Positions 6,872-44,071 of a DNA stretch of 64,000 nt are shown here, in pieces (position 1 is the stretch's first letter; every line of letters starts with the position of its first letter). The notes beneath the pieces were generated by a model. The model was not told the DNA's origin. It made no database searches and saw only the letters and a program-made list of their open reading frames with translations. The position numbers and the translations under genes are program-made. This DNA is from Epichloe hybrida (lineage: Eukaryota; Ascomycota; Sordariomycetes; Hypocreales; Clavicipitaceae). The stretch spans positions 744,001 through 808,000 of the forward strand of contig JAFEKR010000029.1 of assembly GCA_019022495.1 (NCBI GenBank), written 5' to 3'.

Positions 6872-9831
6872 CTAACGCCTCTCATCAACATACACCCTCT
6901 TCGCTTCCAGCTCGCCATCATTGCCATCCTCCCCCGCGCGTTTCTTTTCCTGGTCGCGGGGCGTCTCCTTGGTCGCAGCTTTCCGGGCCTCCCGTTCCCG
7001 ACGCTCATTTTCCTTCCGCAATGCCTTGGACTCAAACTCGTGCCAGTCACCGTCGATTCCTGCAAGTCTGTGTGAGTTCGGTTAGCATCACACGTCAAAG
7101 CCGTCCATCGCCCACCGCCCACTTCTCGGGCATGCAGATATGTAGCCATCAGATATGTAGCCATCGACTTACTCTATTGCCTGTCTCGGTAATGGCTCCT
7201 CCTTGGTGAAGTAGGCGTGCTGTAGAACCCCGGCAGCTGTTGGCCGCTTGGCAGGGTCATATTGGAACATTGCAGACAGAAGCTCAAAGGCCGCTGGCGT
7301 CAACTTGTCGCTGTACTTTTCCGCCAGAGTACTCTTCCGCTTCACCGTCGGCCGCAGCAGCTCGAACCATGCCATGTCGGCCAGGCCGGGCCATTCCTGG
7401 CGGCTGGGCGTACCGAGAACATTGTAGATCTTATCAAGTTGGCTCAGCTCTGTTCCGTCACCTGGGAAGATGGCTGTCCGGTTGAATATCTCCACCATCA
7501 CGCAAGCAGCGCTCCATACATCCACGGCGGCCGTGTATTGGGTTTCTCCCAGTAGGAGCTCCGGAGATCGGTACCATATCGTAATCACACGGTTGGTGTA
7601 ATCCAGCTGGTGTCGCTTGGCGTAGAAGCGGGCCAGTCCGAAGTCGGCCAGTTTGAGGACTCCAGTGTTGCTCACCAGGATGTTTGCCGCCTTGATATCT
7701 CGATGCAGAACACCTCGGAGGTGGAGGTAATCTAACCCTTCAAACAACTGCCTCGCGAGATCTTTTCTTTGCGCAGGCTCGAGCTTAAACGTGGGATGGT
7801 TCAACAGGCCCGTCAGGTCGTGGGACAAGTATTCAAACACCATGAAGCAATCATTCTTCTCCACCATGACCTCCTGGAGGCTGACAATGTTGGTGTGACG
7901 CAAGGATTGGAGCAACTTGATTTCTCGAACTGCCGTCACGGGAAACCCGTCCCTCTCCCCCTCCATGCGTATCCGCTTGAGGGCGACCAGGCCCTTTGTG
8001 TAGACGTTCAGGCCTTTGAACACTTTGCCATACGTACCAGACCCAACCACCGACTCATTGCCTGGCTTCCTGTAAAACACTGACTCGGATGCTGTCAGGT
8101 CAGCATCTAGCATCGGCCGAGCCTTCGGTCGTTGCATCATCTTCTTGACCTTGCGCATTCGATTAGGGGCCATCTTGGAGCCACCGGGCGGCGGGTTCCG
8201 GAAGTCCATCCGCTGTCTTGCTGACGCTGGCTCCGTAGGTGCTGACCGGGGCGGCTCCCGGTCATTGTCGATATCCCTGACCGGTATGTCTTTCTTGGCG
8301 GGGGCATTGAACTTTTGCGAGATTTCGGGTTTGGGGGCTGTTGGCGTGGGCTTCGAAGACGCCTTGAAAGCGAAACTGAACTTGCCCGATATGCCGGTCG
8401 GGGACGATGCAGAACCTGAAGCACCGGGGTGGCATGGTCCAGATGGCACAGAGCCAGCGGGCTTGTCATTGACCCTAGGGTTTTCCGCCGAGGGCCCTCT
8501 TGGAGGCCTTGCGTCTCTGCCAGAATCCATCTCGTTCTGTTTGCGCACATCGTCTTCCCTTGCCGCTGTTGAGTCGCCTTGGTACCTGTTAGCCTCCAGC
8601 TCATCATGTGTGTATTGATTGTTTCGTGCCGATGATTCTGAATTGCCCGGGCCCCAAGGTCTAGTGTTGGGCCCTCTAAAACCACCACGGCTCTGATAAG
8701 AAGATCCTCGCTGGCTGTTTCCACGTGTGGTACCTCGGTAGTTGCCTGACGGGAAGGGGTTCATCGGTCCCGATGGGGCTCCATACGGAGGTGACCTCGG
8801 AGGATGGGGATGGGGATGGGGATGATGGTGGTCTGTGGGACCGCTGGGCGGACCGTGGTGAGCCGGTCCATTGTGATACGAAGGCGGGTGTTGTCTATAA
8901 TTATTATCAGCATACCGATGGCAAAACATTCAGATACGCAAGATTATGGTCAAGCTTACCGTTCGGGTGTGTGTTGTCCGTTCCGTCCTGGACGAGTATT
9001 GGGATAGGGGGAGGTGGATTGAGAATGTTCAAAGGAGCCCCCATGCGGAGGGGACTGCGAGTATCTCCTGGCAACGGTCCCGTAGTGCGATTTGTAGTTG
9101 TGCCCGCCGCGATACGTACTACGTGATTTCATTTCGTCATCCATGTCCGAACGAGACGAATGATGCGGCTCAACCACGTCTATTCCCCTCCTTGCATCTC
9201 GATAAGATCTCGGGGACCTTGGCCGATCTTGTCTCTGTGGTCGCGCGTCCAGGGGTTTCGGGCCAGGAGATGGAGCCCTAGCGGGTTGGGCAGAGCGCGA
9301 TGAGGTACGATGGCGACGAGGAGAAACTTTTAGGCGTTCTCCAGTTGGAGAGGGACTTCGCGATGTCTTTCGGTAGTCTCGGGGCCGTTCCCGTCCACTG
9401 CTTTTCGACAGCTGAGGTCGCGAGTCAGACGGGCGTCTTGATGGTGATAATGAGGCCGAGTCCCTTTGGCGTCTTGTGAGAGAATCTTTCGTTGGTGAGA
9501 GAGATCTGCGTGAGCGGGAATGGCGGCGTGTAGATGTCGACCGGTGTCTTCGGTGATGATGCCGGTGACGGCGATCCTGTGATGGCTCGCGGCGGCTGTG
9601 CTTCCTTGATTCGGTGCTTGGAGAATAGTCTCGGGAGGCCCTGGGAGAATCATGTGCTCTCTTTGATCTTTTTCTAACGGGCGAATCGGTCGAACGACTC
9701 CGTCCTCTGTGTCTTTTCGCGGACGAAGGTGAATGGTGGTGATATTGTTCACGGCTACGGCTTCGGCGAAGCTCATTGTCAAGATCCTGTTCGCGAGCTT
9801 TCTTAGCTCTATATCGGGGTATAAGGTCGTC
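6872..9831 (-). CDS. CTK1: CTD kinase catalytic subunit (Ctk1/CDK12-type), N-terminus displaced
   Basis: Exons on the minus strand: 9831-8960 (5' cut), 8894-7173 and 7067-6872, with matching phases. The first exon encodes an Arg/Ser-rich region; the second a proline-rich linker and a complete CDK domain: GSGTYGKV loop, ALKRI lysine, a PVTAVRE helix, HRDIKAANIL, DFGLARF, and a T-loop with TNRVITIWYRSPELLLG. The C-terminus (DWHEFESKALRKENERRERE) is typical of fungal Ctk1. The orthologue phosphorylates Ser2 of the RNA polymerase II C-terminal repeats with a cyclin partner (Ctk2) and Ctk3, in the nucleus. The frame upstream of 9831 is simply antisense UTP13. The true first 72 codons are at 23722-23939 on the plus strand; joined there, the protein would be about 1000 residues, a plausible full length. 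Confidence 0.92.
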
Positions 9832-12384
9832 CAATTGACTGCGTGGGTAACTCCATCCGCTTCGCACCTGATTATTTGCTCCCGATCGCTTTCCATGAGA
9901 ATATTTGTCCTGAAGCGCTCTCTGGACGAAGTTACAATTGAAGCTTCTCTCGTGCGAACTCTCAAGCCTCACGGTACTCCTGTTGTGGTCTTGGCCGTCG
10001 ATCGTACGAGCACGCTGCTTGCGACTGGCGGAACTGACGGCACGATCAAGGTTTGGGATATCGCGGGTGGTTACGTGACACATACCTTCCGTGGTCCATC
10101 TGTTCTGGTATCAGCCTTGCACTTTTTTGAAGTCGCCGCTCGATCGGGTGATCAGAGTCGCTCACGCAAAGGAAAGAAGAGCGCAGCGACATGTAACGAT
10201 TCCGACGAGGAGACAGATGCCGATACCACCATCAACTTCCGTATTGCGTCAGGTAGCCAGGATGGAAAGGTTCGCGTGTGGGACTTGCATAAACGTGCAT
10301 GTGTCGCCAACCTCGAGTCGCACGTCTCTAATGTCCAAAAGATCGACTACTCCCCCGAGCAGCATGCTTTGGTCAGTGCAAGCAGGGATAAGACCATAAT
10401 TTGGTGGGATACCAGGTCGTGGAAAATCCGAAAGGTCGTTCCATGTCTTGAGCTTGTTGAGACGGCGGGATTCTTGGACGAGGGCCGTCTCACCTTCTCC
10501 GCTGGCGCTAATGGCTGTTTGCGCATTTGGGACACTTATTCTGGCAAGGAGCTTACCCCCGCGCAGTCAGAAAAGAGCGAAGAGGAGGGAATTGTGGCTG
10601 GCATTCACCGCCCAGGTCTTCCATTCATACTCTGCGTTCAAGTAGATCATGCACTTGCACTCTATCGAACGCCTTCCAAGGATACGGCACAATCTTTGAA
10701 GGTTCCCGAGCCGTTCCGTCGAATTTCAGGCACACATGACGAAATCATTGATCTCGGATATCTGCTCCCAGACAGGTCACTTATGGCTCTGGCAACTAAT
10801 TCGGAGGAGGTTCGACTGATCTCAGTGGCCGAAGGCGACCAAGACGACCAAGTATCAGGCTCATGGGATTCTGCCGCAACCCGCTATTTTGGTCAGGACG
10901 TGGCATCACTGAGAGGGCACGAGGACATTGTGATCTCTTTGGATGTTGACTGGTCAGGGCACTGGATTGCCACCGGAGCCAAGGATAACACCGCACGTTT
11001 ATGGAGAGTTGATCCGGCCAACAACTCGTACGTGTGTTGGGCCACTTTCTCGGGTCACGCCGAATCCCTTGGAGCAGTTGCGCTTCCCAGAACTGTCCCG
11101 GTTGAGGGCTCTGCTGCTCGGACTAGTCCTCTAGAGCACCCGCCTACGTTTCTCATTACTGGTTCGCAGGATCAAACAATCAAGAAATGGGACATTCCTC
11201 GCCAACCACAACAACATGGCGCCAAAGCAAGGGCTCACTTCACCCGCAAGGCCCATGAGAAGGACATCAATGCCATCAACATTCATCACTCCAGCAGCCT
11301 GTTCGCCTCGGCATCACAGGACAAGACTGTCAAGATCTGGTCAGTCGAGGAAGGTGACGTTCAGGGCATTCTTCGGGGTCACAAGCGAGGTGTGTGGTCA
11401 GTCCAATTCTCCCCAGCCCAGCTGCCTGCCATCCAAGGGGATGACGGCCCTGTCACTGGCAAGGGCGTGATTATCACAGGTAGCGGCGACAAGAGCGTGA
11501 AATTATGGAGCTTGTCAGACTATACTTGTATCAGAACTTTTGAAGGCCATTCCAACAGTGTCCTGAAGGTAGCGTGGTTGAACATGCCAACCAAGCAGGA
11601 GCAGTCGAAGAAACCAGTTCAGTTCGTTACCGCTGCTGGTGATGGGCTCGTCAAGGTGTGGGATGCCAACTCAGGCGAAGCACTGTGCACTCTGGACAAC
11701 CACGAGGACAGGGTTTGGGCCGTAGCTGTCCATCCAGAAACTAACGCGATCGCATCTGGAAGTGGTGATTCCACTGTGACATTCTGGAAAGACACAACAG
11801 CAGAGACACAAGCCGCTGCATCCCAGGCCACGCTTAAGATGATTGAGCAGCAGCAGGAGTTGGAGAACCACATATATGCGGGCTCATATAGAGAAGCCAT
11901 CACCCTGGCTCTCCAACTGAACCACCCGGGCCGTCTGCTAAACCTATTCACGTCGGTTGTCACCAGTAGCACTCCCGAACGGGGCAGTTTGTGTGGTCTC
12001 AAGGCGGTTGACGAGGTCCTGGGAAGTCTGTCCGATGAGCAGATCTTCCTGTTGCTCCTACGACTCCGGGACTGGAATACGAATGCTCGGACAGCGCCGA
12101 TTGCTCAGCGAATCTTGTGGACACTGGTTCGAAGCTATCCTGCTTCCAAGTTCTCTAATCTGTCAGTAAGGGGTGCTCGCGGGCAGAAGAGCCTGCATGA
12201 CGTGCTCCAGGGTCTTCGAGTGTACACGGAGCGCCACTACAAACGCATGGAAGAGTTGGTGGATGAGAGTTACTTGGTGGAATATACCCTGCAGGAGATG
12301 GACAGCTTGGCCTCGATCGAGACAAGCGATGTGTCCATGAAGAAGTTGGAAGACGGACAGGGGGATGCGGTCATGGTTGGGTGA
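9832..12384 (+). CDS. UTP13: U3 snoRNP WD40 protein Utp13, N-terminus displaced
   Basis: The open frame reads without introns to TGA 12382-12384. It contains two WD40 propellers' worth of repeats (TGGTDGTIKVWD, ASGSQDGKVRVWD, ATGAKDNTARLW, ASASQDKTVKIW, TGSGDKSVKLW) and then the C-terminal Utp13 helical domain (near the end, DWNTNARTAPIAQRIL). Utp13/TBL3 is part of the UtpB module of the small-subunit processome and is needed for 18S rRNA processing in the nucleolus; the yeast gene is essential. The frame from 9733 to 9831 is not Utp13-like: it is antisense CTK1. The natural first 73 codons lie at 24267-23935 on the minus strand. In the present order the first in-frame ATG inside true Utp13 sequence is at 9895, which would drop about 94 residues, most of the first blade. 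Confidence 0.92.
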   Translation, partial: QLTAWVTPSASHLIICSRSLSMRIFVLKRSLDEVTIEASLVRTLKPHGTPVVVLAVDRTSTLLATGGTDGTIKVWDIAGGYVTHTFRGPSVLVSALHFFEVAARSGDQSRSRKGKKSAATCNDSDEETDADTTINFRIASGSQDGKVRVWDLHKRACVANLESHVSNVQKIDYSPEQHALVSASRDKTIIWWDTRSWKIRKVVPCLELVETAGFLDEGRLTFSAGANGCLRIWDTYSGKELTPAQSEKSEEEGIVAGIHRPGLPFILCVQVDHALALYRTPSKDTAQSLKVPEPFRRISGTHDEIIDLGYLLPDRSLMALATNSEEVRLISVAEGDQDDQVSGSWDSAATRYFGQDVASLRGHEDIVISLDVDWSGHWIATGAKDNTARLWRVDPANNSYVCWATFSGHAESLGAVALPRTVPVEGSAARTSPLEHPPTFLITGSQDQTIKKWDIPRQPQQHGAKARAHFTRKAHEKDINAINIHHSSSLFASASQDKTVKIWSVEEGDVQGILRGHKRGVWSVQFSPAQLPAIQGDDGPVTGKGVIITGSGDKSVKLWSLSDYTCIRTFEGHSNSVLKVAWLNMPTKQEQSKKPVQFVTAAGDGLVKVWDANSGEALCTLDNHEDRVWAVAVHPETNAIASGSGDSTVTFWKDTTAETQAAASQATLKMIEQQQELENHIYAGSYREAITLALQLNHPGRLLNLFTSVVTSSTPERGSLCGLKAVDEVLGSLSDEQIFLLLLRLRDWNTNARTAPIAQRILWTLVRSYPASKFSNLSVRGARGQKSLHDVLQGLRVYTERHYKRMEELVDESYLVEYTLQEMDSLASIETSDVSMKKLEDGQGDAVMVG

Positions 12385-12942
12385 TGATTGTGGCTTATCT
12401 TGCGGCGTTTAAAATGCATGCACATGTTGGCTCGAGGGTGTGATCTTGGGGAGGATAGGATCATGGGGCAAATTTTGGGCACTAAATAAAATGAGTTTCC
12501 AACACCTCGCAGTGCCTGCTGTCCAGCCGATGGGCCGGAAGCAAGAAGTTTCAAACACTTTGGTCAGATGCTGGTGATGTTGGTCAAGACGGGTGGTCAA
12601 GACGGGTGGGCATGCGTGCGCACTGCGGACGAAATACCCATCTGAAAGCATGCCGGGTAGGCTGAAGCTAAAGTGCAACAGCTCGCGTCAGCCCCACAAT
12701 GATGCATGAATCAGCATGATGCAGCTTTTGATTTTGGCCTCGCGACTTGATTGACTGACTGCGCAGCCTCGACAACTTGCAAGCTTCATCCAAACCACAC
12801 ATCACGCACCCATCGCAAGGGGTAAATAAAGAGGCCTGTTTTCGCAGCAGCACCGGCCCATTGACACGCGAACCAGCCCCCGGCGCACAAGGCGAACCAT
12901 ATTCAACTCACCCGCGGAATCCCAAAAAAAAAAAAAAAAAAA
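12385..12942. other. Intergenic between UTP13 and SAD1
   Basis: No gene supported. It contains the UTP13 3' flank and the SAD1 promoter and leader. A run of 20 A (12924-12943) reaches into the SAD1 start codon. Confidence 0.55.
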
Positions 12943-14604
12943 ATGGCCAAGCGCCAGGCGTCCGAGCCACTCGACGAGCTCGCAGGCATCGCCTCACCAG
13001 CCTCCAAGAAATCGCGAACAGCAGAACTCGAAACCCCCCCCGACGGGAATGGCGCATCCGCTCTCACACCGACACCTCTGCGAGAAACCACGACGGCCGA
13101 GGCAGACGAAGACGATGTATCCGACTTTGACGACGACGACGAAGTTGTCCCCGTTGCGTCGGCGCCCTGGCGACAGGCAAATCCCACCGAAGGCTACGAC
13201 GACCTGTATCTCGATACGATAGACCGGCACGTGCTCGACTTTGACTTTGAGAAGCTGTGTTCCGTGTCTCTTTCCAACATCAACGTGTACGCCTGCCTCG
13301 TCTGCGGCAAGTACTTCCAGGGACGAGGTCCCAAATCACATGCCTACTTCCACGCTCTCGACCAAGACCACCACGTCTTCATCAACCTCGAGACGCAGAA
13401 GGTCTACGTCCTCCCCGAAGGATACGAGGTGAAGAGCAAGTCCCTAGACGACATCAAATACGTGTCGGACCCACGATACACCAAGGCCGAGGTCATGAGC
13501 CTGGACCGTCCCCCATCGCAGACGGCCGGCCCGGCGAGCCCGGCGAAATCCTGGACCCTGTCCGGCAAGCAATACACGCCGGGCTTGGTGGGCATGAACA
13601 ACATCAAGGAAAACGACTACCTCAACGTCATTGTCCAGGCGCTCTCGCACGTGCCCCCGCTGCGGAACTACTTCCTCCTGGAGGACTTCTCCAAGACATC
13701 AGAGCTGGTCAAGCGGACCTCGATCCTCTTCCGCAAGATCTGGAACCCGCGCGCGTTCAAAGCCCATGTCTCGCCGCACGAGCTCCTCCAAGAGATTGCC
13801 CTCCGCTCCAACAAGCGCTTCACCCTCACGAGCCAATCCGACCCCGTCGAATTCCTCTCCTGGTTCCTCAACAATCTCCACCTCGGCCTCGGCGGCAGCA
13901 AAACCAAACCAGCAAGTTCCATGATCCAGCGCACCTTCCAGGGCAAGCTCAAGGTCGAGTCCCAAGCCATCACCGCCCGTGCCGACGCCACCGACCGTCT
14001 GCGCTTCGAAGAAGCCGCCGAAGTCAAGGTCGACGTGGTGCGCTTCCTGCTCCTGACGCTCGACCTCCCCGCCGCGCCGCTCTTCCAAGACGAGCTCGAG
14101 AAGAACATCATCCCCCAGGTGCCGCTACACACGATCCTCTCCAAATACGACGGCCGCTCAGCACAGGAGCACCACGCCCAGCGCAAGCGATACCGCCTCC
14201 TGCACCCGCTCCCGCCCTACCTCATCCTGCACGTCAAGCGCTTCTCCCAAAACAAATTCGTGTCGGAGCGCAACCCCACCATCGTCACCTTTGACGCCCG
14301 GAACCTAGACGTTTCGCCCTACGTGGAGCCGAACCCCGCCGAGTGGCCGCCCTCGGAACCAATCTGGTACGATTTGGTCGCAAACGTGGTGCACGAGGCT
14401 GTTCGGACGAGAGAAGACGTCGCGGACAGCGGGGATGAGCGCAAAACGTGGAAGGCCCAGGTGAGGGATCGCGCGACGGACGAATGGGTCAGTTGCCAGG
14501 ACTTGTTCGTGGAGAAGGTCCAGAGCGAGCTGCTGTATCTGGGCGAGACGTATCTGCAGATTTGGGAACGGAGGAGGACGCCAGGGGCGAATGGGAAGTC
14601 GTGA
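12943..14604 (+). CDS. SAD1: U4/U6.U5 tri-snRNP protein Sad1/USP39
   Basis: Single exon, 553 residues. An acidic N-terminal region carries a basic KKSR patch. A UBP-type zinc finger follows at about residues 106-155 (C-x11-C-x2-C then HAYFH), then a USP-fold domain from about residue 210 (GLVGMNNIKENDYLNVIVQAL to the C-terminal LILHVKRF and LYLGETYLQIW). In active USPs the first box has a catalytic cysteine; here the box reads NDYLNVIVQ, so, as in known Sad1/USP39, the enzyme is inactive and serves as a splicing scaffold that stabilises the tri-snRNP in the nucleus. The start is ATG 12943, immediately after a poly-A run. Third codon positions are strongly C/G, more than in its neighbours, which creates long shadow frames. 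Confidence 0.95.
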   Translation: MAKRQASEPLDELAGIASPASKKSRTAELETPPDGNGASALTPTPLRETTTAEADEDDVSDFDDDDEVVPVASAPWRQANPTEGYDDLYLDTIDRHVLDFDFEKLCSVSLSNINVYACLVCGKYFQGRGPKSHAYFHALDQDHHVFINLETQKVYVLPEGYEVKSKSLDDIKYVSDPRYTKAEVMSLDRPPSQTAGPASPAKSWTLSGKQYTPGLVGMNNIKENDYLNVIVQALSHVPPLRNYFLLEDFSKTSELVKRTSILFRKIWNPRAFKAHVSPHELLQEIALRSNKRFTLTSQSDPVEFLSWFLNNLHLGLGGSKTKPASSMIQRTFQGKLKVESQAITARADATDRLRFEEAAEVKVDVVRFLLLTLDLPAAPLFQDELEKNIIPQVPLHTILSKYDGRSAQEHHAQRKRYRLLHPLPPYLILHVKRFSQNKFVSERNPTIVTFDARNLDVSPYVEPNPAEWPPSEPIWYDLVANVVHEAVRTREDVADSGDERKTWKAQVRDRATDEWVSCQDLFVEKVQSELLYLGETYLQIWERRRTPGANGKS

Positions 14605-15432
14605 ACATGAAGATGAGGACGAGGATGAAGATGAAGATGGATGTGGACGAAATAGATGGTTGTGCCTACTTTGTCAGAACTCTGAACAAACATCAATAGC
14701 CGGTTCAATGACACACCCATCATCGTCATCATCTTCATCATTCACACACACGCACACTTCGAACAACATACAACGCTCCCGAATTGCGCAGAGCGCCTCA
14801 TTTTCTCCATGATCAAACCGCTGGGTTTGTTCTGGAATCTCGCTACTGGACTCATTTAGCTATACATATATATAGTACATCAGTGCATGAAGGAAAGCTC
14901 CGCGCACGACAAGATCCGATTCGTGCATGAACCGCGTCTCAAAAATTCATTCCGCTGTCCTCTCTCTTCGCTCCCCCGCGTCCCCCACGAAAATAAAATA
15001 AAATAAATCTCTTTTTCTTCACGCCAGCCCTGCTGTATGCATTGAACCTCGGGAACAACCGGATGAAGATTGAATTTTCACGATGCAACCGCAACCAAAG
15101 AAGCACTCCTACCCATATCGTGCTGAGCAAAATGAAATGGAATTGAAAAACAAAACAAAAAAAACGCTCCGAAGAATAGGGCACTACTCGTTCGACCAAG
15201 CACGGAGCAAAGAAGATGCAATAGAAATAATGTACTTGAGGTGAAGCGAAACCGCTCGAGACAGAGACGGCAAGATGAAGTCTGGGTTATGGACCCATGT
15301 GTGTATATATGCTCCTGCCTCGGTGTTTCACAGATACTGTGCAGTAATCTGATGCAAAAGAAACACAGACACATGATGTGAATTCTAATGCTTAAGCTCG
15401 CCAAAATTTGCTTTCCAACATGGTCTTTTCAC
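14605..15432. other. Convergent 3' intergenic region
   Basis: Lies between the 3' ends of SAD1 (plus) and the eIF4E-family gene (minus). It has simple acidic-codon-like repeats just after SAD1 (14605-14645), CATCAT repeats and an AAATA repeat near 14993-15006. No gene is supported; frames at 14939-15404 are hydrophobic shadows without a family. Confidence 0.5.
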
Positions 15433-16687
15433 CTAGTCTTGATTCTGTCGCTGCATATTGGAGATGTGACGTCTGTCGCCGCCCTGGTTTTGATGAGCCT
15501 TCTCACGACGTTGTTCATCGATGGCAGTCCTTTGTTGGATGCTGGAGTCGTGGCTTTTGAATTCGACGCGAGTGTTGGGGGGAAAGTTGAGAACATGCTT
15601 CATTGTCTCTCTGTGCAGGCAAAGCAAGAACACGAGTGTGGTTAGTCAAGTTCCTCGTCTAGCAGAGGAAACACGAATATGATACCGAAGAAGGCTCTTA
15701 CCGAATCTTGAGAACCCGACCACCAACTGTGCGGGTCCAAATGCTCAGAATGTCTTCACCATTGCGCATGCTGAGTACCGCACCGCAAACGTCCTCACCA
15801 GCGTCGCCAAACTGGTCCCCGATGAGAGACAAGATCAAGTCTTCCCAGTAGCGATCAGCGACGCCCTTCTTCATCCTCACAACCCACTTTCCTCCCTTGC
15901 GATTCACGTCATCTTCCCAGATGGGACGAATATCACTCTTGAAAAGGTGATAATCTGACACAACAGGCAACGATGACGGTCGCTTCAGGTGAGAATAAAT
16001 GTCCCAGAACTCCTCGGCAGTGCGTACGGTGGCAATGCCATGCAACGTATTTTCGTATGCGATGAAGCCGTGGGCCTTGGAGATGGGGGGTCGGTACCAG
16101 AAAGACCACGCATCTTTCAGCGAATGGGCTTTGGCAGCTGGAGAAGAGGCGGAAGTCCTCTTCTCGGCGATAGATGCCATGCTTGAGACTTTAGCCATTG
16201 ACTTATTTCCATCCTTGGGGACCGTAGTCTTGGGCACAGCGGAGCCCATGGCGGTGTCGAACGGATTTCCACCAGACTTGGGTGTCTTGGCAGACCCAAA
16301 CGACGCGAAAGCACCTGAGCCCAAGCCAAAAGCGCTCGAAGCGCCGCTTGTTGGAGATGCTAGGCCACCGCCTGACGCGTTGAAGGGGCTGGCTTTGCCA
16401 TGCGCCGAGGTTTCGCCTCCATGGCGCCTTGAGAAAGGGCCATTACGTGAGGAATCATTCGCCGATGAGCCGTTCGGGCCGGGTGACGACGTCGTGAGCG
16501 ATAGCTTACCGGAGCTGCGAGCGGACAGAAAAACAACCGTGATCAGCCCTTGTAATGCTCATAGTGATCGGTATAGAGCGGCAGTTGGGGGGGGGGGGGG
16601 ATTTGTGGCACGAAGCAAGGTATGGAAGGCAGTATTCGGAACTTACTTTGTGCGACGGGTCCAAAGGTTGTTGTTGTCGGTCGCCAT
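15433..16687 (-). CDS. eIF4E-family cap-binding protein (4EHP-like)
   Basis: Exons on the minus strand: 16687-16647, 16514-15702 and 15610-15433, giving 343 residues with consistent phases. The protein opens MATDNNNLWTRR. A long Ser/Gly/Pro-rich disordered segment precedes the eIF4E fold (about residues 140-300): SLKDAWSFWYRPP, TAEEFWDIYSHLKRPS, YHLFKSDIRPIWEDDVNRKGGKW, then YWEDLILSLIGDQF and VCGAVLS. These conserved Trp and Glu positions are those of the m7G cap pocket and dorsal face. The first pocket position reads SFWYRPP, with Tyr where canonical eIF4E has Trp, which points to the 4EHP (eIF4E2) class that binds cap without promoting initiation. That activity is inferred. Intron 1 contains a G12 run; the C-terminal exon is polar and Gln-rich. 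Confidence 0.88.
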
Positions 16688-17972
16688 GAAGACGTTGTTT
16701 AAGCGTCGCGTTGAAAAGAGCGGCTCGGTATCGGTAGACACCCCGAAGCAGACTTGCGAGGGTCAAAGCAAGGGGAAAGGAGAAGTTGGACGAGGGACTT
16801 TCAAGGGCGGCGGAAGGCGTAGACTGCAGAGGAGCGACGTTTCGACAATGTTACTGGTGTGCTGAAGAGGTGGACAAGCGTCGGAGGCGGCTGGGTTTGA
16901 GATGATGGGTGAGCTCGCTGCAGGTCGGGACGGATGCAGGACGAAGAGGGTGACGCACGACGGGCCTTGAGGTGGCGTCGCGATGGGCCGTGATTGCGGT
17001 TGCGGTTGCGGTTGCGGTTGCGGGTGCTGTTGCTGTTACAGTTGTGCGAGCAAAGTGAGGGTACGGCGTATGTACAACGTAGGTCGTGTGTGTCAAAACG
17101 GCGTGTGTGGCAATTGCGCAGAATGACGTAGATTGGATTAAACAGATGCTAATGGTGATATTGAAGAGACGGCGCGAGGTGAAGGTGAGATGATGAAGAC
17201 AATGTTTAGTATCGAAGGGTGGTGACGAGTCGAGTCGAGGAATGTTGTTGCGTGGTGGATCTGGAGTTTTTTTTTTTTTCGACGGAGAGACTGGCAGGAG
17301 ACGAGCTTGTGGAGGTGGTGGAGGTGAGGTGTGTGGTGTTGTGGAGGTCGAGAAATTCTTTGTCAGGTCCGTGTCTGGATTGTCTTGTTCAGCGCGTGGG
17401 TTCAGCGCGTGGGTTCAGCGTCCACGGCAGGCACATGGTGGACCATCCCAACTTGTCGGTCAGTGAATATTACATTACATGTATGTAGCTAGCTGACTTG
17501 GCAAGAAGAACGTCTGTCCTTTCCCGTAGCTTAGGCGTTGACGGAAGTCGCTCATGAAGACGCAACCAAAGTCTCACGCAATCAACAAACCTTGATGTGA
17601 CCCAACGGAAGATCAATTCAACATCGTCCCCGCTGAACGACAACCAGGCATCTACGGATCCATAATCCGTACACATCTTCTCATTGCCTCGTACCACCCC
17701 CTGAGGTTGAGAGGTTGAGGGGTTCAGGCAAAGACGCCCCACTACCACACCCCCCACCGGGTGCCCCTAGCCTTCTCTATTATGTAGCAAGCTAATCCTT
17801 ATCGCTTATCGCCTCTTAGGGAAAAAATTTCCCTGCAAGACACCACCAGCCTCGTTATCCAGCCGCGTTCACGTCCACGTCCACGTCCAAGCCATCGCTG
17901 CCACCACCACCAGATCTTCATAAGTACCAACCCAGAAGTCAAATCAGGGTATCGTTATCTTCTCCCCCAAGA
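16688..17972. other. Divergent intergenic region
   Basis: About 1.3 kb between the starts of the eIF4E-family gene (minus) and LOC1 (plus), so it holds two promoters. A GGTTGC hexamer repeat is at about 16994-17025 and a T-run at 17267-17279. A duplicated TTCAGCGCGTGGG lies at about 17389-17413. No protein-like frame was accepted. Confidence 0.5.
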
Positions 17973-18668
17973 ATGGCGGCTTCCAAAACAAGAACGATCA
18001 AAAACAAACATGCCGCCCCGAAAGGAGGGTCTTCTTCCAAAGGCGGCGCAGGCGCAAAACGCTCCGACACCGATGGCATCTCGAAATCAAGGAAGCCCAA
18101 GGGCCCCGTGGTATCGCAGCAAGTCAAGGAGAAGAACCGCGCTGCAATGTTGAAAAAGCCCAAGAAGAAGGTATACACGGAGGCTGAGCTCGGTATCCCG
18201 GAATTGAACATGGTCACGCCCGTGGGTGTGGTCAAGCCGAGGGGCAAGAAGAAGGGCAAGGTTTTCGTTGACGACACGGTAGGTCGCTCACCGTCATGCT
18301 CTGCTCAACTGAACCCCAGCGGATGGTGTAGCAGTAGGGGGCGGGATCCACACAAATGTTGTCGCTAACGAGCATGTTGACAGGAGGGCATGGGAACGAT
18401 CATGGCCATGGTCCAGGCCGAGAAGAATGGCGAGATCGAATCAAAATTGATCAAGGCTCGACAGATGGAGGAGATTAGGGAGGCGCGCAAGGTTGAAGCT
18501 CAGAAGAAGGAGCATGAGAAAAAGTCCAAGCTTGAGGACACCAAGGATTCTCTGAGGAAGAAGCGAAAGAGAAAGGGCGCGGCGGGCGACGACGACGACT
18601 CTGTCAAGACTTTGGCCATGTCGGGATCCAAGGCTACCAAGACGAAAAAGAAGGTCGCATTTGCATGA
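17973..18668 (+). CDS. LOC1: 60S ribosomal subunit assembly/export protein Loc1
   Basis: Two exons, 17973-18278 and 18384-18668, joined in phase 0, give 196 residues. The intron has a GTAGGT donor, a GCTAACG branch and CAG acceptor. The protein is very basic with Lys-rich stretches and has the Loc1 core: [16 protein letters not shown], then a [20 protein letters not shown] segment split at the intron, then [24 protein letters not shown] and a Lys/Arg coiled-coil tail. Loc1 is a nucleolar RNA-binding protein needed for 60S assembly, and in yeast also for nuclear steps of ASH1 mRNA localisation. It sits within the inverted interval and is intact. Confidence 0.92.
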
Positions 18669-18982
18669 AAGGCTGGCGGTTGGCTTCGTCTATGACGGAC
18701 ACGATGATGGGATATTTGCATGTTCACTCTTCATTTATGCATTCGGCATCGTTTGGCGCTTGGGAGTTTGTTTGGGCTCATCTCGGACACGACAATGTTG
18801 GTATTTTCCAAATTTGGTGTACATTGGACCATGGATAAGACTTCTGGCTGCAAGCATGTGAAAATCACAGATCTGATAATGCTATCTACTCTTATCCTTT
18901 CTGGTCGTGCAACAAGTTGTGTCAATGGTAGGTCGACTTGCGTACAACCAGTGCCTCGCAGCACTTCTCCGCTTTTTCTTCT
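18669..18982. other. Convergent 3' intergenic region
   Basis: About 0.3 kb between the LOC1 stop and the stop of the minus-strand hydrolase. Nothing beyond presumed terminators was seen. Confidence 0.5.
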
Positions 18983-20624
18983 TCACTGTCCATATACCTC
19001 GAGCTTGCGTTGCATAGGCTTGTAGGTTGCGCCGTGAGATGAATTTTCGGGAACAATACTCTCCGTAGATGGGTTCAAGCTGTCCAGATCGACCTTGCGT
19101 GCAAGATGATTCAAGAAGTTGCATACCTGCAAAGAGTCAGCACGCCTATATATTGTGGTTTCTCTCAACGGGCTTACCGGCTTTGGGTACCATCGACTGC
19201 CACCTGATTCGAACCAGCACAAATGACCACCTAGTGAGGTCGTGATCATGACGGTATTGGGGTTGAGTTTAAACTCTTCGTACGGAAGGGCTTGTTTGAC
19301 GGCAATCTATAATGCCAATCAGTTTCAAGACCTATATCTGATGGGGAAAGCACAATGGAAGTTTACTTACAGGGTCGTCAGCAGCCTGTAAAGCCACAAA
19401 GGGAATTCTTATATTGAGCACCGCATCTGTGGACGATGCATCTCGGTAGTAGGCAGTCTCGGTAGGGTAGCCCCATGTCGGACACCTACGAATGATGAGC
19501 AAGATTCAGAATATAACTAGAGACAAAGAACGACACGTACTGGACTTCGCGATCAAAATCGTGTAGGTAAGTGATTACTGACTTAATCGAACGCGGATCG
19601 AGGCTGCTATGCTTCTTCAACGCTTCCTCATGCGTTTCAATTAAGGATTTCATGGCCGCTATAAAAATGTCAGACAGGCAAGTCGCTCGAGGGACTTCGG
19701 ATTGCCGTGCATACTTACTGCCCATGGCTCTGAGATATACCTCCTTGCCAATCAAGCTGTTCTGCATCATTTTATTCGAGACTTCCAGATTGAAAGGGTT
19801 TGAGCAGACAACTGCTCCTTTGAGCAAGCATTTCTCCCCTTCTTCGCCACAATACTGCCTCACGTCTTAGCATCCAATTGCCAGGGGGTTTGTGGAAATT
19901 GAGATTGGTATTTCCATGTGTTTTCGTACTTACGTTTGTGAGCATGTTGGCCCCCAACGAGAAGCCTAGACCAAACAAAGGACGATTCGGAAAGGTCTCT
20001 CTCAACCACTTCACCGTCTGCGCGGCAGATGTTAACACGAGTCTTTCAGCAACGATCATGGCAACTGAGACTAACCTGTCTCATGTCCCACGTAGCACGA
20101 GCGTTATAGAGTATACCGCTCGTGATTTTGCTCATTGCACATCCTCTTGAATTGACCACGCACACCTCCCAACCACCGTCACCCAGTAAAGGTAAGATAG
20201 CGTGTCTCAAATAGACCTCATGCGAGCCACCAGAGAGTCCATGCAAAACGACGAGCATAGGCTTAGAATCGTCGGAGCCAATGTTGGCGAACTCGCCGTC
20301 AGTGTAGTACATCGTCCTTCTCGGTAAAGACTCGTCCCCGCCTTCGAAAGGCTGCACGGCAAAATCCACTGCAAAGGTTCCCCGGTAGGTTTTGTGGTCA
20401 GCTTCGAATATCTTGCGCCGATAGTAAATCTGCGGCCCATGTGGTCTCATAACAGTCCACATCGTTTGTGCATGGCCATTGAAAAGCAGCGGATTCAATC
20501 GGCAAGGCGGCGTCGCTGCCTCGACAATTTTGAGCACGTCCGTCTCTTTTCCATCCTTCTCTTTCAATGTCCGTGGCGTGGGCGCATGAGTAAAATCAAC
20601 CTTGGCATGCCCAAACCACTCCAT
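18983..20624 (-). CDS. Alpha/beta hydrolase of the Eht1/Eeb1/Mgl2 (YheT-like) family
   Basis: Seven exons on the minus strand: 20624-20076, 20017-19934, 19854-19719, 19658-19541, 19485-19371, 19306-19178 and 19126-18983. Total is 424 residues, with all phases consistent. The N-terminus MEWFGHAKVDFTHAP and RLNPLLFNGHAQTMW are family hallmarks. The oxyanion region is VVLHGLSGGSHE, the nucleophile elbow GFSLGAN (Ser about 203), the acid in AADDP (about 332) and the base in SLGGHLCW (His about 362). Yeast members make or hydrolyse medium-chain fatty acid ethyl esters or monoacylglycerols on lipid droplets or membranes; the exact substrate here is inferred. An upstream in-frame extension exists (to 20915) with a hydrophobic stretch; I start at 20624 because family proteins begin there. 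Confidence 0.88.
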
Positions 20625-22583
20625 CTTTTTGAAGATGCTCGACCAGTGCGCTGCAATAAATGGGCAACTTTGTAAAAAAGATACCGGCGCTAGACTGGCG
20701 GCAAGTGCACTGATGATGAGAATAGGAAAAAAAAGGGGGGGGCAGGTGGGGCAGGTAAAGCCTATGTAATAGAAGACAGCCGATGGTGAACAGCACAAAA
20801 CGACAAGTAATATGTCCTGGAACACAAAGGCATTGAATTGCACTTGAAGGAGGTCGGGGTATGATACGCCCATATACGACAAGATGTAAAGACTGCGCAA
20901 GCACTGCGCAAGCACTGCGCAAGCAACACAGTTAATGGGAGTCTCTTCTACCCGGCTACTTCAATATGGGAATGAGCTCCGTCCTCCGTCGGTCTTGCCT
21001 GCCAAAAAGGTCATCTGAGAATTGGAGCCACATCATGCTTTGGTCTATTGGTGCTTTGCTTCTTTACCAACCCACTAACCCAATCGCGGCAGAACAAATT
21101 CACCGATAGGCGAACGAATTTGACAAAACCCGATCGCCGTGTTCTATGTATGTACTTCTTTTTACTGCAGGCCACGGCCGAGCACCGAGAAAACTCGTGT
21201 CCCCTGCATAATACCCCGGAATGGTTACACAAGGACCTCATTAGCCAACGGGGTCGTAATCTCACCAGGTAAATTGAATGCGAAGCATATTGAGCAAATA
21301 ATTCGCTTAGCAGGGGATAACGACTATTATCGCGAAGGTCGCAAAGGTCGAGCTGACGGTCGTAGGGTTTGAAGGGTTGCTCTACAAGCATGACCAGAGT
21401 TAGAAGACGAAGCTGCTGCCGCTGCTGCTGTTGATGATGATGATGATGTCGAAAGAAGATGGGTTTTAGACCAAGCGAGCTTGTGTTGCCCGATGGCGGA
21501 CAATCGTCTATGACGAATTATAGGCGCGCGCAACCGTATGGAGGAAGCTGAAGATGCACGTAGCTAAATCGCGAGAATGTACTTAAAAAAACATACAATA
21601 TTCACGTAACTACTCTCTCTATAAAACAGGAGCTTTTACCTTTCTGTTTGTGCAGTACAAGGTAGCTTCAATCCATCCTTTTTCTTCATTGATCATCCTG
21701 CTAGGGGATATCTTTTCCCGACGTCACGTGCACCACGCACGATAGCTTGACAGTCCCAATGGGCCTGACGACCTTAATGCCCGGGATTCTGAAAATGTAG
21801 GGAAAGTATCTAATCATAATTAGGATGAGTAACTTTTTTGTGTATAATTTGTACGTCCGTAATCCGTAATTTTCCTTGTGTTGTTCAAGGCATTATTGTA
21901 CCTTGGGCTGCCACACTCATGCCTTAGGCCACCCTAGGCAGCAACCTGTAGGGGAAACACGACTTTTAGTCCGTTAACTCCGTAGATGATCCGCTTGATC
22001 AACAATCGACCACGTGATCTAGACCTGAGAACGTGACCTTTGCTCTACGTCTGTCCACAGTCAATCCACTCCCTCGTGCTTGATCAGACCAAATATGGTT
22101 GGGTTGTCCCACCCCTTTTTGGCACCGCAAAGGACTGTTGAATTGTCCCATTTGAACGAGTCAATGATCGGGCATGAGCGACCTGGGGCGACCGGGCTCT
22201 TGACAAGAATTTGTACGAAAATGAAGTCGCCGTGATACAAGCCTAGCCCGCATGAGGTCGCTGCGGCTGCCTTCTACAAGGTCATTTCTCGTCGAAACAC
22301 GCCAATACACTCGATGCCGCGATGTTTGCCGTCACTGCTGGATGCGACTCCAAATAGGTGATACGAATTTAGGACCAATGAGAAACGGCACCTCACAAAA
22401 TCAGTTCGGATTCGCTAGTTACAAGAATATGCCGGTGGAAAGTCATCTTTGTCAAAAGGACGCTTCCAGGTTACGCAGCAATTCGTAAAAGCACCGGAAA
22501 TAAGAGGATCTTTCAGCAACGACTTGATTACGCATTATCAGGATCCTGGGATCGAACACAGTCAATTTCTACTATCATGGCTT
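20625..22583. other. Intergenic, about 2 kb, no supported gene
   Basis: Contains the promoter of the hydrolase, a repeated GCAAGCACTGC unit (about 20895-20925), CTG/GAT microsatellite at about 21412-21450, and AT-rich DNA from 21.5 to 22.0 kb. Overlapping frames on both strands lack protein character. Long intergenic DNA of this kind is unusual compared with the compact 9-20 kb part. Confidence 0.45.
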
Positions 22584-23007
22584 TTAGAAGCCCTTGGCTC
22601 TCATCCTAGCCGCATTCTGTGCGGCTTCTCTCTGCACTTCCCTCTTCTGTCGTTCCAAGTCAGCGTTGCCTGTGCTTCTTGTCAATGGATCCGGTCTATC
22701 ACTCACAGCTTTTTTTTTTCCTGCGAAGACCAAGTCTGGGCTGAAGACCACAGCCCGTCACATCCGCGGATAGATGCTGATCGATGCGAATCGCGACTGA
22801 GCTACGAGACCAGAATGTACTGGCACTCAATACTGACGCCTCAAGAGTCGAAATATGGAGTCACGGATCGCCAGGGAGAAGATTGGCACTTACGCGAATG
22901 CTGATCATCTCGGACACCCTCTGACGCGGCTCGAGAGGGACCGTGCTGTCGCCAGTTCTCCAGAACTCGGATTTTGTTGGAGGGATTTCAATCGTCAGAC
23001 TCATCAT
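22584..23007 (-). pseudogene. Possible small gene with broken frame, function unknown
   Basis: On the minus strand ATG 23007 opens MMSLTIEIPPTKSEFWRTGD up to a good GTAAGT donor at 22893. Further down a frame with coding character ends at TAA 22584-22586 (ERQKREVQREAAQNAARMRAKGF, a helical charged tail). Between them an A10 run (minus strand; T10 at 22710-22719) puts the two parts out of frame for the splice sites I could find. Either the intron structure differs, the run has an indel, or the gene is dead. The ATG overlaps the stop of an upstream 75-codon frame (23231-23004). No family was recognised. Confidence 0.3.
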
Positions 23008-23721
23008 TTCAGTTGATTGAGCGTGCTTCGTAAATGATCCCAGAGGATCCGTATATAGTCTTCTCTTTCCAACCCTCTGACCGTGTAGTGACGGCTGTTG
23101 AGGTCATGATGATGTGAGGCCAGTGGTTGGGCCTCACACGACTTTGGATGAGAGCCGGCTGGAAATGCGGCTGCAGGAGAGAACGACAACTGCGACTGCG
23201 TGGTCGAAATGCAGGAGGAAACTGCAAGCACTCATGAATCTAAAGATGGACGACAGATACGAGTCGGCAGGATATGACAATTGGCATGGATGAAAATGGC
23301 AGACTGAAAGTTTTGGTACGCTGGGTCGAGAATGAATGCCCATCGTTGGGCAATGGCCGGAGGAGTCAGTGCAAGCACACGGTAAGCCAAAGAATCATGA
23401 TATAGTGCAGGCATCAGGGGATGCGACTTTCCGAGTTGCCAAAATGCTGTCCTTGGTCGGCTCACAGGGGGAGAATGAGGAGCGATTGATCTGCAGCATT
23501 TGGTCCGCACTGCGTCGTCGTGCGCCAACTCAGCCCTGGTTGTTCGGGTCCTGGTGGTTATGGGGTTCATGGTGGCTGCACCACAGCACGCCCCGGCCCA
23601 GTTGTTCGGCTAAGGTGCGGCGATTTGTCGTGACAGCACTAAAACTCAAACGGGGTACTCGAGAGAAGTCGACGCCTTCAGCCGTCCACAACTACATCCG
23701 CGTCGCCGTCGATATGTTGCC

Positions 23722-23939
23722 ATGAGAGATCCTGGAGGTAGTGATCAGGGAGAAAGGGCCCGAAGTGGTCGAGGACTACCGTCCTTGGACGGACCAAGAT
23801 CTCCTCCACGGCCAGCCCGGCGCAGCCCCAGCACTGGATCCCGCCTTCGCCATTCCAGATCCGACCACGACTCTTCCAAGAACGACCATCGCCGCTCTCG
23901 CGACCGTAGCAGAGATCGCTCGCATAAGCATCAAGACGA
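23722..23939 (+). pseudogene. CTK1: Displaced N-terminal 72 codons of CTK1
   Basis: ATG 23722 opens a Gly/Arg/Ser-rich frame: RDPGGSDQGERARSGRG, then RSPPRPARRSPS and RRSRDRSRDRSHKHQDD. This is the same RS-type composition as the cut first exon of CTK1 at 9831-8960. At GACGA (23935-23939) the composition changes abruptly; the sequence beyond is antisense UTP13. Joined at the shared pentamer to the minus strand at 9826, the reading frame continues exactly (QDD then LIPRYR). The fragment keeps what should be CTK1's own promoter (about 23.0-23.7 kb). As it stands, transcription here would give a short RS peptide with an unrelated tail. Confidence 0.8.
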
Positions 23940-24267
23940 TTCCGTCGACTGGATAGAATTAGTCAATGTGCGGATGCACTGGCGCCGAGAAACAACCTAC
24001 AGGTCAAGGTTGATATCATTTCGCCATCCTAATTGGACCGTCAGCACATCATCTTCCAGAATACGAAGCCTCCCGAGGGGTTCATCTTACTCCCTCAATC
24101 TGGGCGAGATGCTTGCCGTTGGCGGGGTTGGTGAGGACTGCATCTTCACCCAAGGTTGTGGCCAAAACCTGAGCTTTGTTGTCGATTGCGATTGCGCCAC
24201 CAGTAAATATAGGCCGAATAACGTTTCCTACGTCAAAAGTCGTCTTTGATGGTTGTTTGATGGGCAT
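23935..24267 (-). pseudogene. UTP13: Displaced N-terminal 73 codons of UTP13
   Basis: Minus-strand exons 24267-24091, 24028-24001 and 23948-23935. The first reads MPIKQPSKTTFDVGNVIRP with GEDAVLTNPANGKHLAQIEG, the usual Utp13 start and first blade strand; the second reads DGEMISTLT. Introns are 62 bp (GTAAGA donor, TTAG acceptor) and 52 bp (GTAGGT donor, TTGACTAATTC branch, CCAG acceptor). After the last exon's TCGTC the homology stops and antisense CTK1 begins. Joined at TCGTC to 9832 on the plus strand, the frame continues into the Utp13 body without shift. The presumed UTP13 promoter remains here (24.27-25.2 kb), shared head-to-head with the gene at 25.27 kb. Confidence 0.82.
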
Positions 24268-25265
24268 GTTGAAGACTCAAGATGTTGAAGTGACAATTTT
24301 GAAGTTGAAACTTTTTTTTGGGGTGCCGCGCTAATAGCGGCCTGGCCTGGTTGGCAGTTGCTGCCCGCTGGCCAGGTGGTCGGTCCGGGCAGCTAAGTCG
24401 GAAAAGTCGAGAGGACGAATCTACACAGTTTTAAAATATAATCTGAGTTTTGATCGAGGCTTGTACATACGACCATACCTACCAGAAAATTCGGGATCCC
24501 GTCCGCTCTCCCATAGACAAGCTGGTAAGGGGCAGATTAGTAGTTGGGTCGGTGACGACCAGCGAACACCGGCTGTTGTATGTTTTTTGCCAATTACGTG
24601 TGCGAGTACGTCCAAAACGTCTGCATGACTTTAACACTGTCGTCTATAACTTATGGCTTTTCTGGTAACGGCGGATGTACGTTTTATTTTTGACGAATGC
24701 GCTTTTGGTTATCCAACTGCAACAGATGCCTATACCTAGTCACATCCCGCGTCACACTGTATATCCATCACTGCGGGCCTCTTCTATGTCAATCGTCAGA
24801 ATTTGTCACACTAGCTGGGCATCGCTAGCAATCCCGATGTGTTCACAAATCCGATGCATTGGCCACAACTCATGAGCAGGAAAAAACTCTAAAATTCAAT
24901 ATATATATTACTGTATTCTACGCGTCCGTATTTATTAGACTGGCCATTACGACTAAACAGGAGGCAAGGAACTCATGATTTGCCGGCGCACAGATAAGGC
25001 ACGTGACGTTGCGCCGCCTTGATGTCTCTCGCATGTCGCCAATGCCTTCGCTTCCACATTTTCTAAAGAGGTGGAGCAGGACAACAGCGAAAAGTCGTGA
25101 ATACGGATTAGACCAAAGTTGACCCAGAACGTTGGGCACGCCTGCCGGTAGCCCGCACCTTTATGCAGGACCCTGCACGTTAACACCATCAACCTTGACT
25201 GCGATTCATCCACAGTCGTTTCAGTCGTTTCAGTCGTGTCTCTTCCTCTCTCTTCTCCACCCAAC
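24268..25265. other. Divergent intergenic region
   Basis: Lies between the original UTP13 start (minus) and the membrane-protein gene on the plus strand. It includes an AT-rich section near 24.89-24.95 kb. No protein-coding frame is supported. Confidence 0.5.
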
Positions 25266-42856: not shown

Positions 42857-42860
42857 GCCT

Positions 42861-42976
42861 TGAAGCAGTACCAAAATTGAGTGGGATAATGTAGGTTGTA
42901 TTGTTCAGTTATCTAGCTACCGGGTTCCCTATAATAATACTACTAATAATTACCTTAGCCATTCTCCACCTCAACA
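42861..42976. repeat. Left LTR of the Gypsy-like element
   Basis: 116 bp from TGAAGCAG to CCTCAACA. It is the 3' LTR in the element's own orientation. It differs from the right LTR at 12 positions, all transitions; nine of them keep C or G here where the other has T or A. Preceded by GCCT. Confidence 0.85.
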
Positions 42977-44071
42977 GGCTAGCGGGGTCTAAGATAGTGT
43001 TAACCATAATATCATAAGCTAGTGATTATTCTTACTAATCCTTTGAGTTATTCCTCCCCTTAATTATTATTCTCTATCTCCTAATAATTCTATATCTCTT
43101 TCTTTAGATCCTAATTAGCTATATCCTAAGTATTTAATCTAGGTAGTTATAATCTTTCCTGGCGCAGGATATACATCTTTAGGTTATTAATATAAATTTT
43201 CTAACCTTATCCACCTTCTAATGGTTTAATTTTGTAGGACACTAATAATAGCTTTTTCTTTACTATTAAAAGCTTTCCCTAGGTCTTATAGAATTTCCCC
43301 TTTAACTTATTCTCCTTATCTATTTTCTCCTATATAAGATTACTAACTTTAAACTAATATAAGGATTTTAAGGAGTTATCTTTACTATTAGTCTTTCGGG
43401 TTTAAATTAATTCTCTTCTCTCCTCTCTTAGATTAGAATACTATAAGTTTATTTCTTAGATTAGTTTAGAGTTACTCTCTAGTTTTAATAAGTCCCTAAT
43501 CTCCTCTAGGTTATTATTAACTCCCATATGCTTTGTAAATAGATTAAATCCTAACATTAATATAGCTAGGGTTATCCTAGCGCTTAATATAAACTAATTA
43601 TTTAAAATAACTATAATACTTAGAATAGCCTAATTCTATAAATTAAGTAATACTCTATCCCTTTCTACTACCTACTTTATTAATTATTATTTCACTAGGT
43701 AAATATTTCGCTTAGCAAGTCCTATGGAAGCAGGATATAAGATAGGTTTAAATATAATTATTATACTATCTTTTCCTGCTATTAATTCAAAGGTTAGGTT
43801 CTTAAAGTAGGATTCGTTATTATAGTAGATTCTTTTTAGCTAACTAAAAATAAAGCTCTAATACTTATCCTATATCTAAGTAACTAAATCCCTAGTAGCT
43901 TCATTATAAGACTATCCTAGCGCAAACCTTATTATATAGTCCACTACGATTAATACATATAAGTCCCTATTTCAAGCCTTAGGAGCAGAGCTTTGCATGT
44001 AGTGTAGTATTTGTAGTATTTTAGCTTTCGATGTAGTATGTAGTGTAGTAGTTTGTAGTGTAGTGTAGTAT

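What the first reader, a model, noticed from the sequence alone, without database searches (positions are those of the whole stretch)
9827..23939. A 14.1-kb inversion cuts CTK1 and UTP13 and can be undone exactly at a shared pentamer
The CTK1 body (minus) and UTP13 body (plus) collide at 9.83 kb, and both lack their N-termini. Both N-termini are at 23,722-24,267, in opposite orientation. Undoing the inversion between TCGTC (9,827-9,831) and GACGA (23,935-23,939) joins CTK1 as QDD then LIPRYR in frame, and UTP13 as exon 3 to CAA TTG ACT in frame. It gives proteins of about 1000 and 923 residues. Two genes with introns being restored by one cut pair is very unlikely by chance. UTP13 is essential in yeast, so this is either a real rearrangement with a rescue (for example heterokaryon, duplicate copy or tolerated truncation) or an assembly or library artefact.
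Basis: partly seen in the sequence, partly recalled or inferred. Interest (0 to 1): 0.92.

Follow-up and report, generated by a model that had tools for sequence, protein, structure and literature searches.

The report
Inversion breaks two hybrid fungus genes

Summary
The inversion is in the sequence. The assembly holds a second, uninverted copy of the region (contig C1). Over about 88 kb of C1, 21 of 25 alignment blocks run the same way; the four inverted ones are exactly the 14.1-kb block. CTK1 (1007 aa) and UTP13 (913 aa) are intact on C1 and cut on the window's contig C79. The pentamer only seems to work because GACGA occurs twice, 30 nt apart, inside CTK1; its UTP13 join is also wrong (the break sits at the 3' splice site of intron 2).

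C1 is 8,313,425 bp and the assembly 79.9 Mb, as published for Epichloe hybrida Lp1, a young E. festucae-type x E. typhina allopolyploid. By one marker gene C1 matches E. festucae; C79 is then apparently typhina. An intact UTP13 of the C79 type exists in other public data. The broken coding stretches have no stops. Best reading: a real, recent, two-break inversion after hybridisation, removing two homeologs at once, tolerated because the other parent's copies remain. No reads were available, so an artefact is unlikely but not excluded.

The parts
9846..9849 (.). Left inversion junction: CTK1 sequence (antisense) up to 9846, shared GT 9847-9848, UTP13 from 9849
   Evidence: alignment to both C1 loci; one mismatch to C1 at 9845
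23947..23950 (.). Right inversion junction: CTK1 up to 23947, shared dinucleotide 23948-23949, UTP13 from 23950
9849..23947 (-). Inverted block relative to C1 (about C1 2242755-2256664)
   Evidence: 4 of 4 alignment blocks here are minus
8960..9846 (-). CTK1 exon 1, part after the break
   Evidence: open frame, 90.8% aa identity to C1 exon 1 after the break; 3' boundary read from the sequence by analogy with C1
7173..8894 (-). CTK1 exon 2 with protein kinase domain (PF00069)
   Evidence: boundaries read from the sequence by analogy with C1
6872..7067 (-). CTK1 exon 3 and stop
   Evidence: read from the sequence by analogy with the C1 model
23722..23947 (+). CTK1 N-terminal fragment (start codon to break)
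   Evidence: C1 match 96%
9849..12384 (+). UTP13 last exon (body: WD40 repeats, PF08625 Utp13 domain)
24091..24267 (-). UTP13 exon 1
24001..24028 (-). UTP13 exon 2
23950..24000 (-). UTP13 intron 2, cut at its 3' splice site
12865..14604 (+). Open frame carried in the inverted block: ubiquitin hydrolase with zf-UBP (name Sad1/USP39-like recalled)
15698..16558 (-). Open frame carried in the inverted block: eIF4E family (PF01652)

Best explanation
The window carries a 14.1-kb inversion, relative to a second copy of the same region on contig C1 where both genes are whole, that cuts one copy each of CTK1 and UTP13; it likely arose by two double-strand breaks rejoined end to end in the apparently E. 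typhina-derived subgenome of what is likely the hybrid Epichloe hybrida Lp1, likely after hybridisation, and is likely tolerated because the E. festucae-type copies on C1 supply both functions. Shown: the inversion in the assembly, the intact C1 genes, a second copy of each gene family tested, the junctions, the lack of long flanking repeats, and an intact C79-type UTP13 in other public data. Inferred: the name of the strain (from contig length and total size), that the assembly is true at both joins, that the event is younger than the hybrid, that the joining was non-homologous, that the broken copies are non-functional, and that the C1 copies rescue. Predicted: the two bodies lost their promoters, and the two N-terminal stubs, now convergent, would make only short chimeric products (125 aa if UTP13 splices into CTK1 antisense; 175 aa by CTK1 read-through).
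For: C1 holds an uninverted copy with intact CTK1 and UTP13. Two UTP13 body loci in 79.86 Mb at E<=1e-30 (53 of 158 candidates scored); probes over each junction hit only C79 and C1. MCM: 12 loci, which fall into six pairs by score, so a doubled genome. C1 length 8,313,425 and 79.86 Mb equal the published Lp1 figures (PMC7922272, section read). One nearby gene: C1 copy 99.6% identical over 495 aa to E. festucae Fl1 C2857_005384, C79 copy 90% over 335 aa and 82% over 415 positions that include a damaged stretch. P0001, an intact 913-aa UTP13 from unnamed public data, is identical to C79 over 68 of 68 N-terminal residues and 843 of 844 body residues; C1 differs from it at 16 body residues. Broken coding parts: 0 stops; UTP13 body dS 0.099, dN/dS 0.10; CTK1 exon 2 dS 0.104, 0.11; CTK1 exon 1 after the break dS 0.094, 0.47; eight other open frames range 0.09-0.41. 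Junctions keep every base; one mismatch against C1.
Against: No reads: the joins rest on one assembly (Illumina, pyrosequencing and nanopore). A stretch at about 2.14-2.35 kb of the same contig is full of small deletions against C1, so the consensus may be locally poor. UTP13 essentiality in this fungus is not shown and in yeast is recalled. The parental label of C1 and C79 rests on one gene. No intact C79-type CTK1 was found, but the C1 type was not found either, so that is uninformative. The absence of decay also fits an artefact or a break made in culture.
Confidence: 0.83

Rival explanations
1. Assembly or library artefact: the block was flipped in silico or through chimeric molecules, and the strain has an uninverted C79 copy.
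For: No read data; a stretch with many small deletions at 2.14-2.35 kb; published assembly mixes three platforms; no stops in the broken genes.
Against: Both junctions are reciprocal with no N, loss or duplication and one mismatch. Longest inverted match in +-500 bp is 10 bp in C79, reached or exceeded by 181 of 300 random pairs in the window, and 11 bp in C1, reached by 66 of the same 300; no inverted repeat of 40 bp or more found in the window. The block's identity to C1 (88-93% by block) is like its flanks, so it is not a C1 piece. Probes found no uninverted C79-type copy in the assembly.
Confidence: 0.12
2. The inversion was already present in the E. typhina parent before hybridisation.
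For: Nothing in the sequence separates before from after; only one genome of this type was at hand.
Against: It would have left a haploid parent without intact UTP13 and CTK1 (essentiality of UTP13 recalled). An intact C79-type UTP13 exists (P0001). In 8 of the 9 locus-tag series that I could pair from names, CTK1 and UTP13 are 5-7 gene numbers apart; in the ninth (Ophiocordyceps unilateralis XA68) they are far apart, on short contigs. Tags do not give orientation.
Confidence: 0.03
3. The truncated copies remain functional: the UTP13 body is translated from an ATG at 9733 in CTK1 antisense (883-aa open frame) or from an internal ATG, and the CTK1 body keeps its whole kinase domain, so the break is neutral for function.
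For: Both fusion frames are open: 883 aa for UTP13, 384 codons for the CTK1 side; kinase and Utp13 domains intact; dN/dS of UTP13 body and CTK1 exon 2 not raised.
Against: Neither body retains its own start; UTP13 loses residues 1-69, present in 7 of 7 full-length relatives printed. No transcript data were seen.
Confidence: 0.1
4. A programmed or recurrent invertible segment (site-specific switch).
For: Sharp, reciprocal ends.
Against: No inverted repeat longer than chance at the ends; ends lie inside two genes.
Confidence: 0.01

Closest known systems
Homeolog loss by deletion in E. hybrida Lp1 (PMC3945203; abstract and passages)
   Same: Likely the same strain; one parental copy removed, other kept; 87 of 6,698 genes given there as candidates for loss; at least 20 genes said to be deleted
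   Different: There deletions, mostly of the AR5 (festucae-type) copy and several near AT-rich regions; here an inversion of the apparently typhina-type copy in gene-dense DNA, two genes cut at once with no sequence lost; 'inversion' has 0 occurrences in that main text
Broken MAT homeolog of Zygosaccharomyces parabailii (PMC5433688; abstract and passages)
   Same: Post-hybrid rearrangement without repeats breaks one homeolog of a hybrid
   Different: Reciprocal translocation after HO cleavage at MAT, with a fertility phenotype; here an inversion, no known nuclease, two housekeeping genes
Rearrangements in Verticillium longisporum (PMC8406199; abstract and passages)
   Same: Allodiploid fungus with post-hybrid rearrangements and homeolog loss
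   Different: Syntenic breaks associated with repeats there; no repeat at the ends here
Inversions in haploid Epichloe (PMC9318876; passages and section 3.4)
   Same: Same genus, if the strain is Lp1
   Different: Inversions are the rarest class there, 0-3 per terminal branch in the 14 of 15 rows seen, and rearrangements mostly in AT-rich DNA; this one is in GC-rich genic DNA

Membership tests
Simple (non-homologous, two-break) inversion | Same content, opposite orientation, reciprocal junctions | tested here: met
Simple (non-homologous, two-break) inversion | No or minimal homology at breakpoints | tested here: met
   2-bp GT shared; longest inverted match +-500 bp is 10 bp in C79 (181 of 300 random pairs equal or exceed) and 11 bp in C1 (66 of 300)
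Simple (non-homologous, two-break) inversion | Present in the DNA of the strain (reads) | not testable with these tools
   no reads held
Repeat-mediated inversion (NAHR) | Long inverted repeats at both ends | tested here: not met
Homeolog loss in an allopolyploid | Two diverged copies genome-wide | tested here: met
   12 MCM loci, six pairs by score, 2 UTP13 loci, dS about 0.1 for most of the frames compared; only these families and this region were tested
Homeolog loss in an allopolyploid | One copy intact, the other disabled | tested here: met
   C1 intact, C79 cut
Homeolog loss in an allopolyploid | Disabled copy intact in the parent | tested here: inconclusive
   intact C79-type UTP13 P0001 without organism name; neither type of this CTK1 found
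Homeolog loss in an allopolyploid | Expression only from the intact copy | not testable with these tools
   no transcript data held
Invertible switch | Recombination sites as inverted repeats, both orientations present | tested here: not met
   only one orientation of the C79 type in the assembly

The most novel reading that the evidence does not exclude
The inversion is one tooth of a ratchet that locks the hybrid: each parent's genome has lost at least one indispensable gene that only the other still supplies (UTP13 now only from the festucae-type C1; an MCM replication helicase gene now only from C124, its partner on C115 having an in-frame TGA), so neither parental set can be shed again. 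This needs C115 to be festucae-derived, which I could not decide.
Probability: 0.15. Interest if true: 0.75.

Novelty: new member of a known kind. Interest (0 to 1): 0.5.

Why it matters
If true at the read level, it is a base-resolved case in which one inversion removes two housekeeping homeologs in a young allopolyploid fungus, by a class of mutation that is the rarest in the genus, in gene-dense DNA without repeats. It would show how hybrid redundancy relaxes the ban on breaking essential genes and would give a dated marker: it cannot be older than the hybrid if UTP13 is essential. It would also make one region of the festucae-type genome indispensable. For genome readers it is a caution that a broken essential gene can mean a second copy elsewhere.

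Tried and rejected
Repeat-mediated inversion: no repeats beyond chance. Relaxed selection on the broken copies: not seen for UTP13 body and CTK1 exon 2; CTK1 exon 1 has dN/dS 0.47, but it is an RS-rich stretch and the value is a two-copy comparison, so it is no evidence either way. Mating-type search PF04769: no match in the genome and none in the 14 controls, so uninformative. Subgenome labels by repeats: a 258-bp insertion and an LTR probe both hit C1 and many other contigs, so C115 and C124 stay unassigned. Intact C79-type CTK1: among the 45 hits (E<=1e-150) none is over 83% identical to the C1 query, so neither Epichloe type is listed. Paper searches (listings only) for an inversion in Lp1 or for breakpoints in hybrid homeologs showed no title or abstract reporting this event; names printed with accented letters cannot be searched there, so this is weak.

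Full report
What was checked. The window is G000:C79:744001-808000 of a 79,862,988-base assembly in 156 contigs. A 501-base probe over the left junction hit C79 and, in two halves of opposite strand 14 kb apart, contig C1 (94 and 97% identity); a 551-base probe over the right junction did the same (95 and 96%). I fetched 100 kb of C1 and 70 kb of C79 beside the window.

The inversion. blastn of 134 kb of C79 against 100 kb of C1 gave 25 blocks longer than 150 bp (shorter ones dropped): 21 of 25 on the same strand and in order apart from small overlaps, 4 of 25 on the other strand, and these four tile window 9847-23949. The blocks run from about 26 kb left of the window to 16 kb right of it (C1 2,212,103-2,300,000, the end of what was fetched). 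The four long C1 frames further left have no match in the C79 stretch fetched.

The junctions. Left: C79 follows C1's CTK1 (antisense) up to 9846, with one mismatch at 9845, and C1's UTP13 from 9849; GT at 9847-9848 belongs to both. Right: CTK1 up to 23947, UTP13 from 23950, with the same two letters shared. No base is lost or gained. The window has no N. In +-500 bp the longest inverted match between the two ends is 10 bp in C79 and 11 bp in C1; of 300 random pairs of places in the window, 181 had 10 or more and 66 had 11 or more. No inverted repeat of 40 bp or more was found in the window.

TCGTC (9827-9831) and GACGA (23935-23939) are both inside CTK1. GACGA occurs twice in CTK1 exon 1, 30 nt apart, at QDD and LDD; joining the copies is in frame but drops ten residues that the intact C1 copy has. 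The UTP13 break is at the 3' splice site of its second intron.

The genes. On C1, CTK1 is 1007 aa in three exons and UTP13 913 aa in three exons (models made by hand from splice sites and the relatives). The window's CTK1 body keeps the kinase domain (PF00069) and its UTP13 body the Utp13 domain (PF08625).

Which genome. C1 is 8,313,425 bp. The published E. hybrida Lp1 assembly has contigs of 9,259 to 8,313,425 bp, 79.9 Mb and 158 scaffolds (PMC7922272, section 2.1 read; here 156 contigs are held). Sequencing there was by Illumina, pyrosequencing and nanopore (section 5.3 read); MaSuRCA and manual curation are stated for the sister strain e19, not for Lp1. MCM loci number 12, six pairs by score, so the genome is doubled (six MCM2-7 genes per haploid set is recalled). 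A fast-evolving gene at window 2.2-3.4 kb has a C1 copy 99.6% identical over 495 aa to E. festucae Fl1 C2857_005384; the C79 copy is at 90% over 335 aa and 82% over 415 positions including a damaged stretch. So C1 is festucae-type at this gene and C79 the other parent, which by PMC3945203 is E. typhina (passages read). The C79 label typhina is by exclusion and from one gene.

Polarity and age. P0001, 913 aa, is an intact UTP13 from unnamed public data (longest contig 2,902 bases). As the gene has introns, an unbroken 913-aa frame on a short contig suggests a transcript (inference). It is identical to C79 in 68 of 68 N-terminal residues and 843 of 844 body residues; C1 differs from it at 16 body residues. 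So the C79-type gene was whole elsewhere. In relatives, CTK1 and UTP13 of one locus-tag series are 5-7 gene numbers apart in 8 of the 9 series I could pair from names (four Claviceps, Cosmosporella, Stylonectria, two Fusarium); in the ninth, Ophiocordyceps unilateralis, they are 1,984 apart, on short contigs. Broken stretches: UTP13 body dS 0.099, dN/dS 0.10; CTK1 exon 2 dS 0.104, 0.11; CTK1 exon 1 after the break dS 0.094, 0.47; 0 stops. Eight other long open frames ranged from dS 0.01 to 0.22 and dN/dS 0.09 to 0.41 (open frames without gene models, best match only, pairs under 80% identity or 250 aa dropped). Nothing marks decay, so the break is likely young, or an artefact.

How it would work. 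Two breaks, one in CTK1 exon 1 and one at the UTP13 splice site, rejoined end to end in swapped order (inferred; a 2-bp overlap is too short to prove a pathway). The promoters should stay with the short N-terminal stubs, now convergent; the bodies stand head to head. Spliced, the UTP13 stub would read 125 aa; the CTK1 stub reads through to 175 aa. Rescue by the C1 copies is inferred. UTP13 is described as a UTP-B subunit of the SSU processome (PMC5466602, passages); that UTP13 is essential and CTK1 dispensable in budding yeast is recalled, and the passages I saw do not state it for Utp13.

Setting. In Lp1, PMC3945203 reports almost all genes retained, an age of no more than 300,000 years, 87 of 6,698 genes as candidates for loss and at least 20 genes deleted (passages); its main text has 0 occurrences of 'inversion'. 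In haploid Epichloe, inversions are the rarest class (0-3 per terminal branch in the 14 of 15 rows seen) and rearrangements affect 1-11% of nucleotides in GC-rich regions against 43-71% in AT-rich (PMC9318876).

A second disabled essential-type copy. One of the 12 MCM loci (C115:149171-149839) has an in-frame TGA; its partner on C124 is open. The stop is a single substitution and could be an error. It fits the same redundancy, but which parent each contig comes from is unknown.

An idea not tested: the convergent stubs could make double-stranded RNA against the intact copies; the genome has Piwi-domain matches (6, one of them short with a stop), no more was looked at.

Noticed in passing
window 60001-63999: About 4 kb is 99.4-100% identical to C1 against 83-98% in the other scored 1-kb bins: a likely gene-conversion tract between the two parental copies.
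   Followed up: partly
window 42757-55803: A 13-kb AT-rich block (GC 0.19-0.29 in its 2-kb bins) with tandem arrays is absent from C1, whose flanks are contiguous: likely mutated repeat insertion on one parental copy.
   Followed up: partly
G000:C115:149414: An MCM-family gene has an in-frame TGA while its partner copy on C124 is open.
   Followed up: partly
window 2140-2350: The 5' part of a conserved gene (homolog of E. festucae C2857_005384) is full of small deletions against C1: poor consensus or real decay.
   Followed up: partly
window 21484-21741: 258-bp insertion absent from C1, flanked by a 6-bp repeat AGCTTG; 39 other matches at 73-80% among the 40 scored of 109 candidates: a small mobile-element family inside the inverted block.
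   Followed up: partly
G000:C79:723961-730745: 6.8-kb insertion absent from C1 with TG...CA ends and GGTCC on both sides; 500 bp of it has 42 other matches (40 of 1124 candidates scored): looks like an LTR retrotransposon.
   Followed up: partly
window 24465-24584: A 5S rRNA gene lies 515 bp from the right breakpoint.
   Followed up: no
G000:C79:91392 and G000:C69:5131110: One MCM pair (by score) links C79 with C69 rather than C1, so the two parental sets may not be colinear along the whole of C79.
   Followed up: no
C1 2220370 and 2297574 (minus frames) against C79: Of 36 C1 frames of 250 aa or more, these two, besides CTK1, match C79 in two reading frames: possible frameshifts or introns in one copy.
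   Followed up: no
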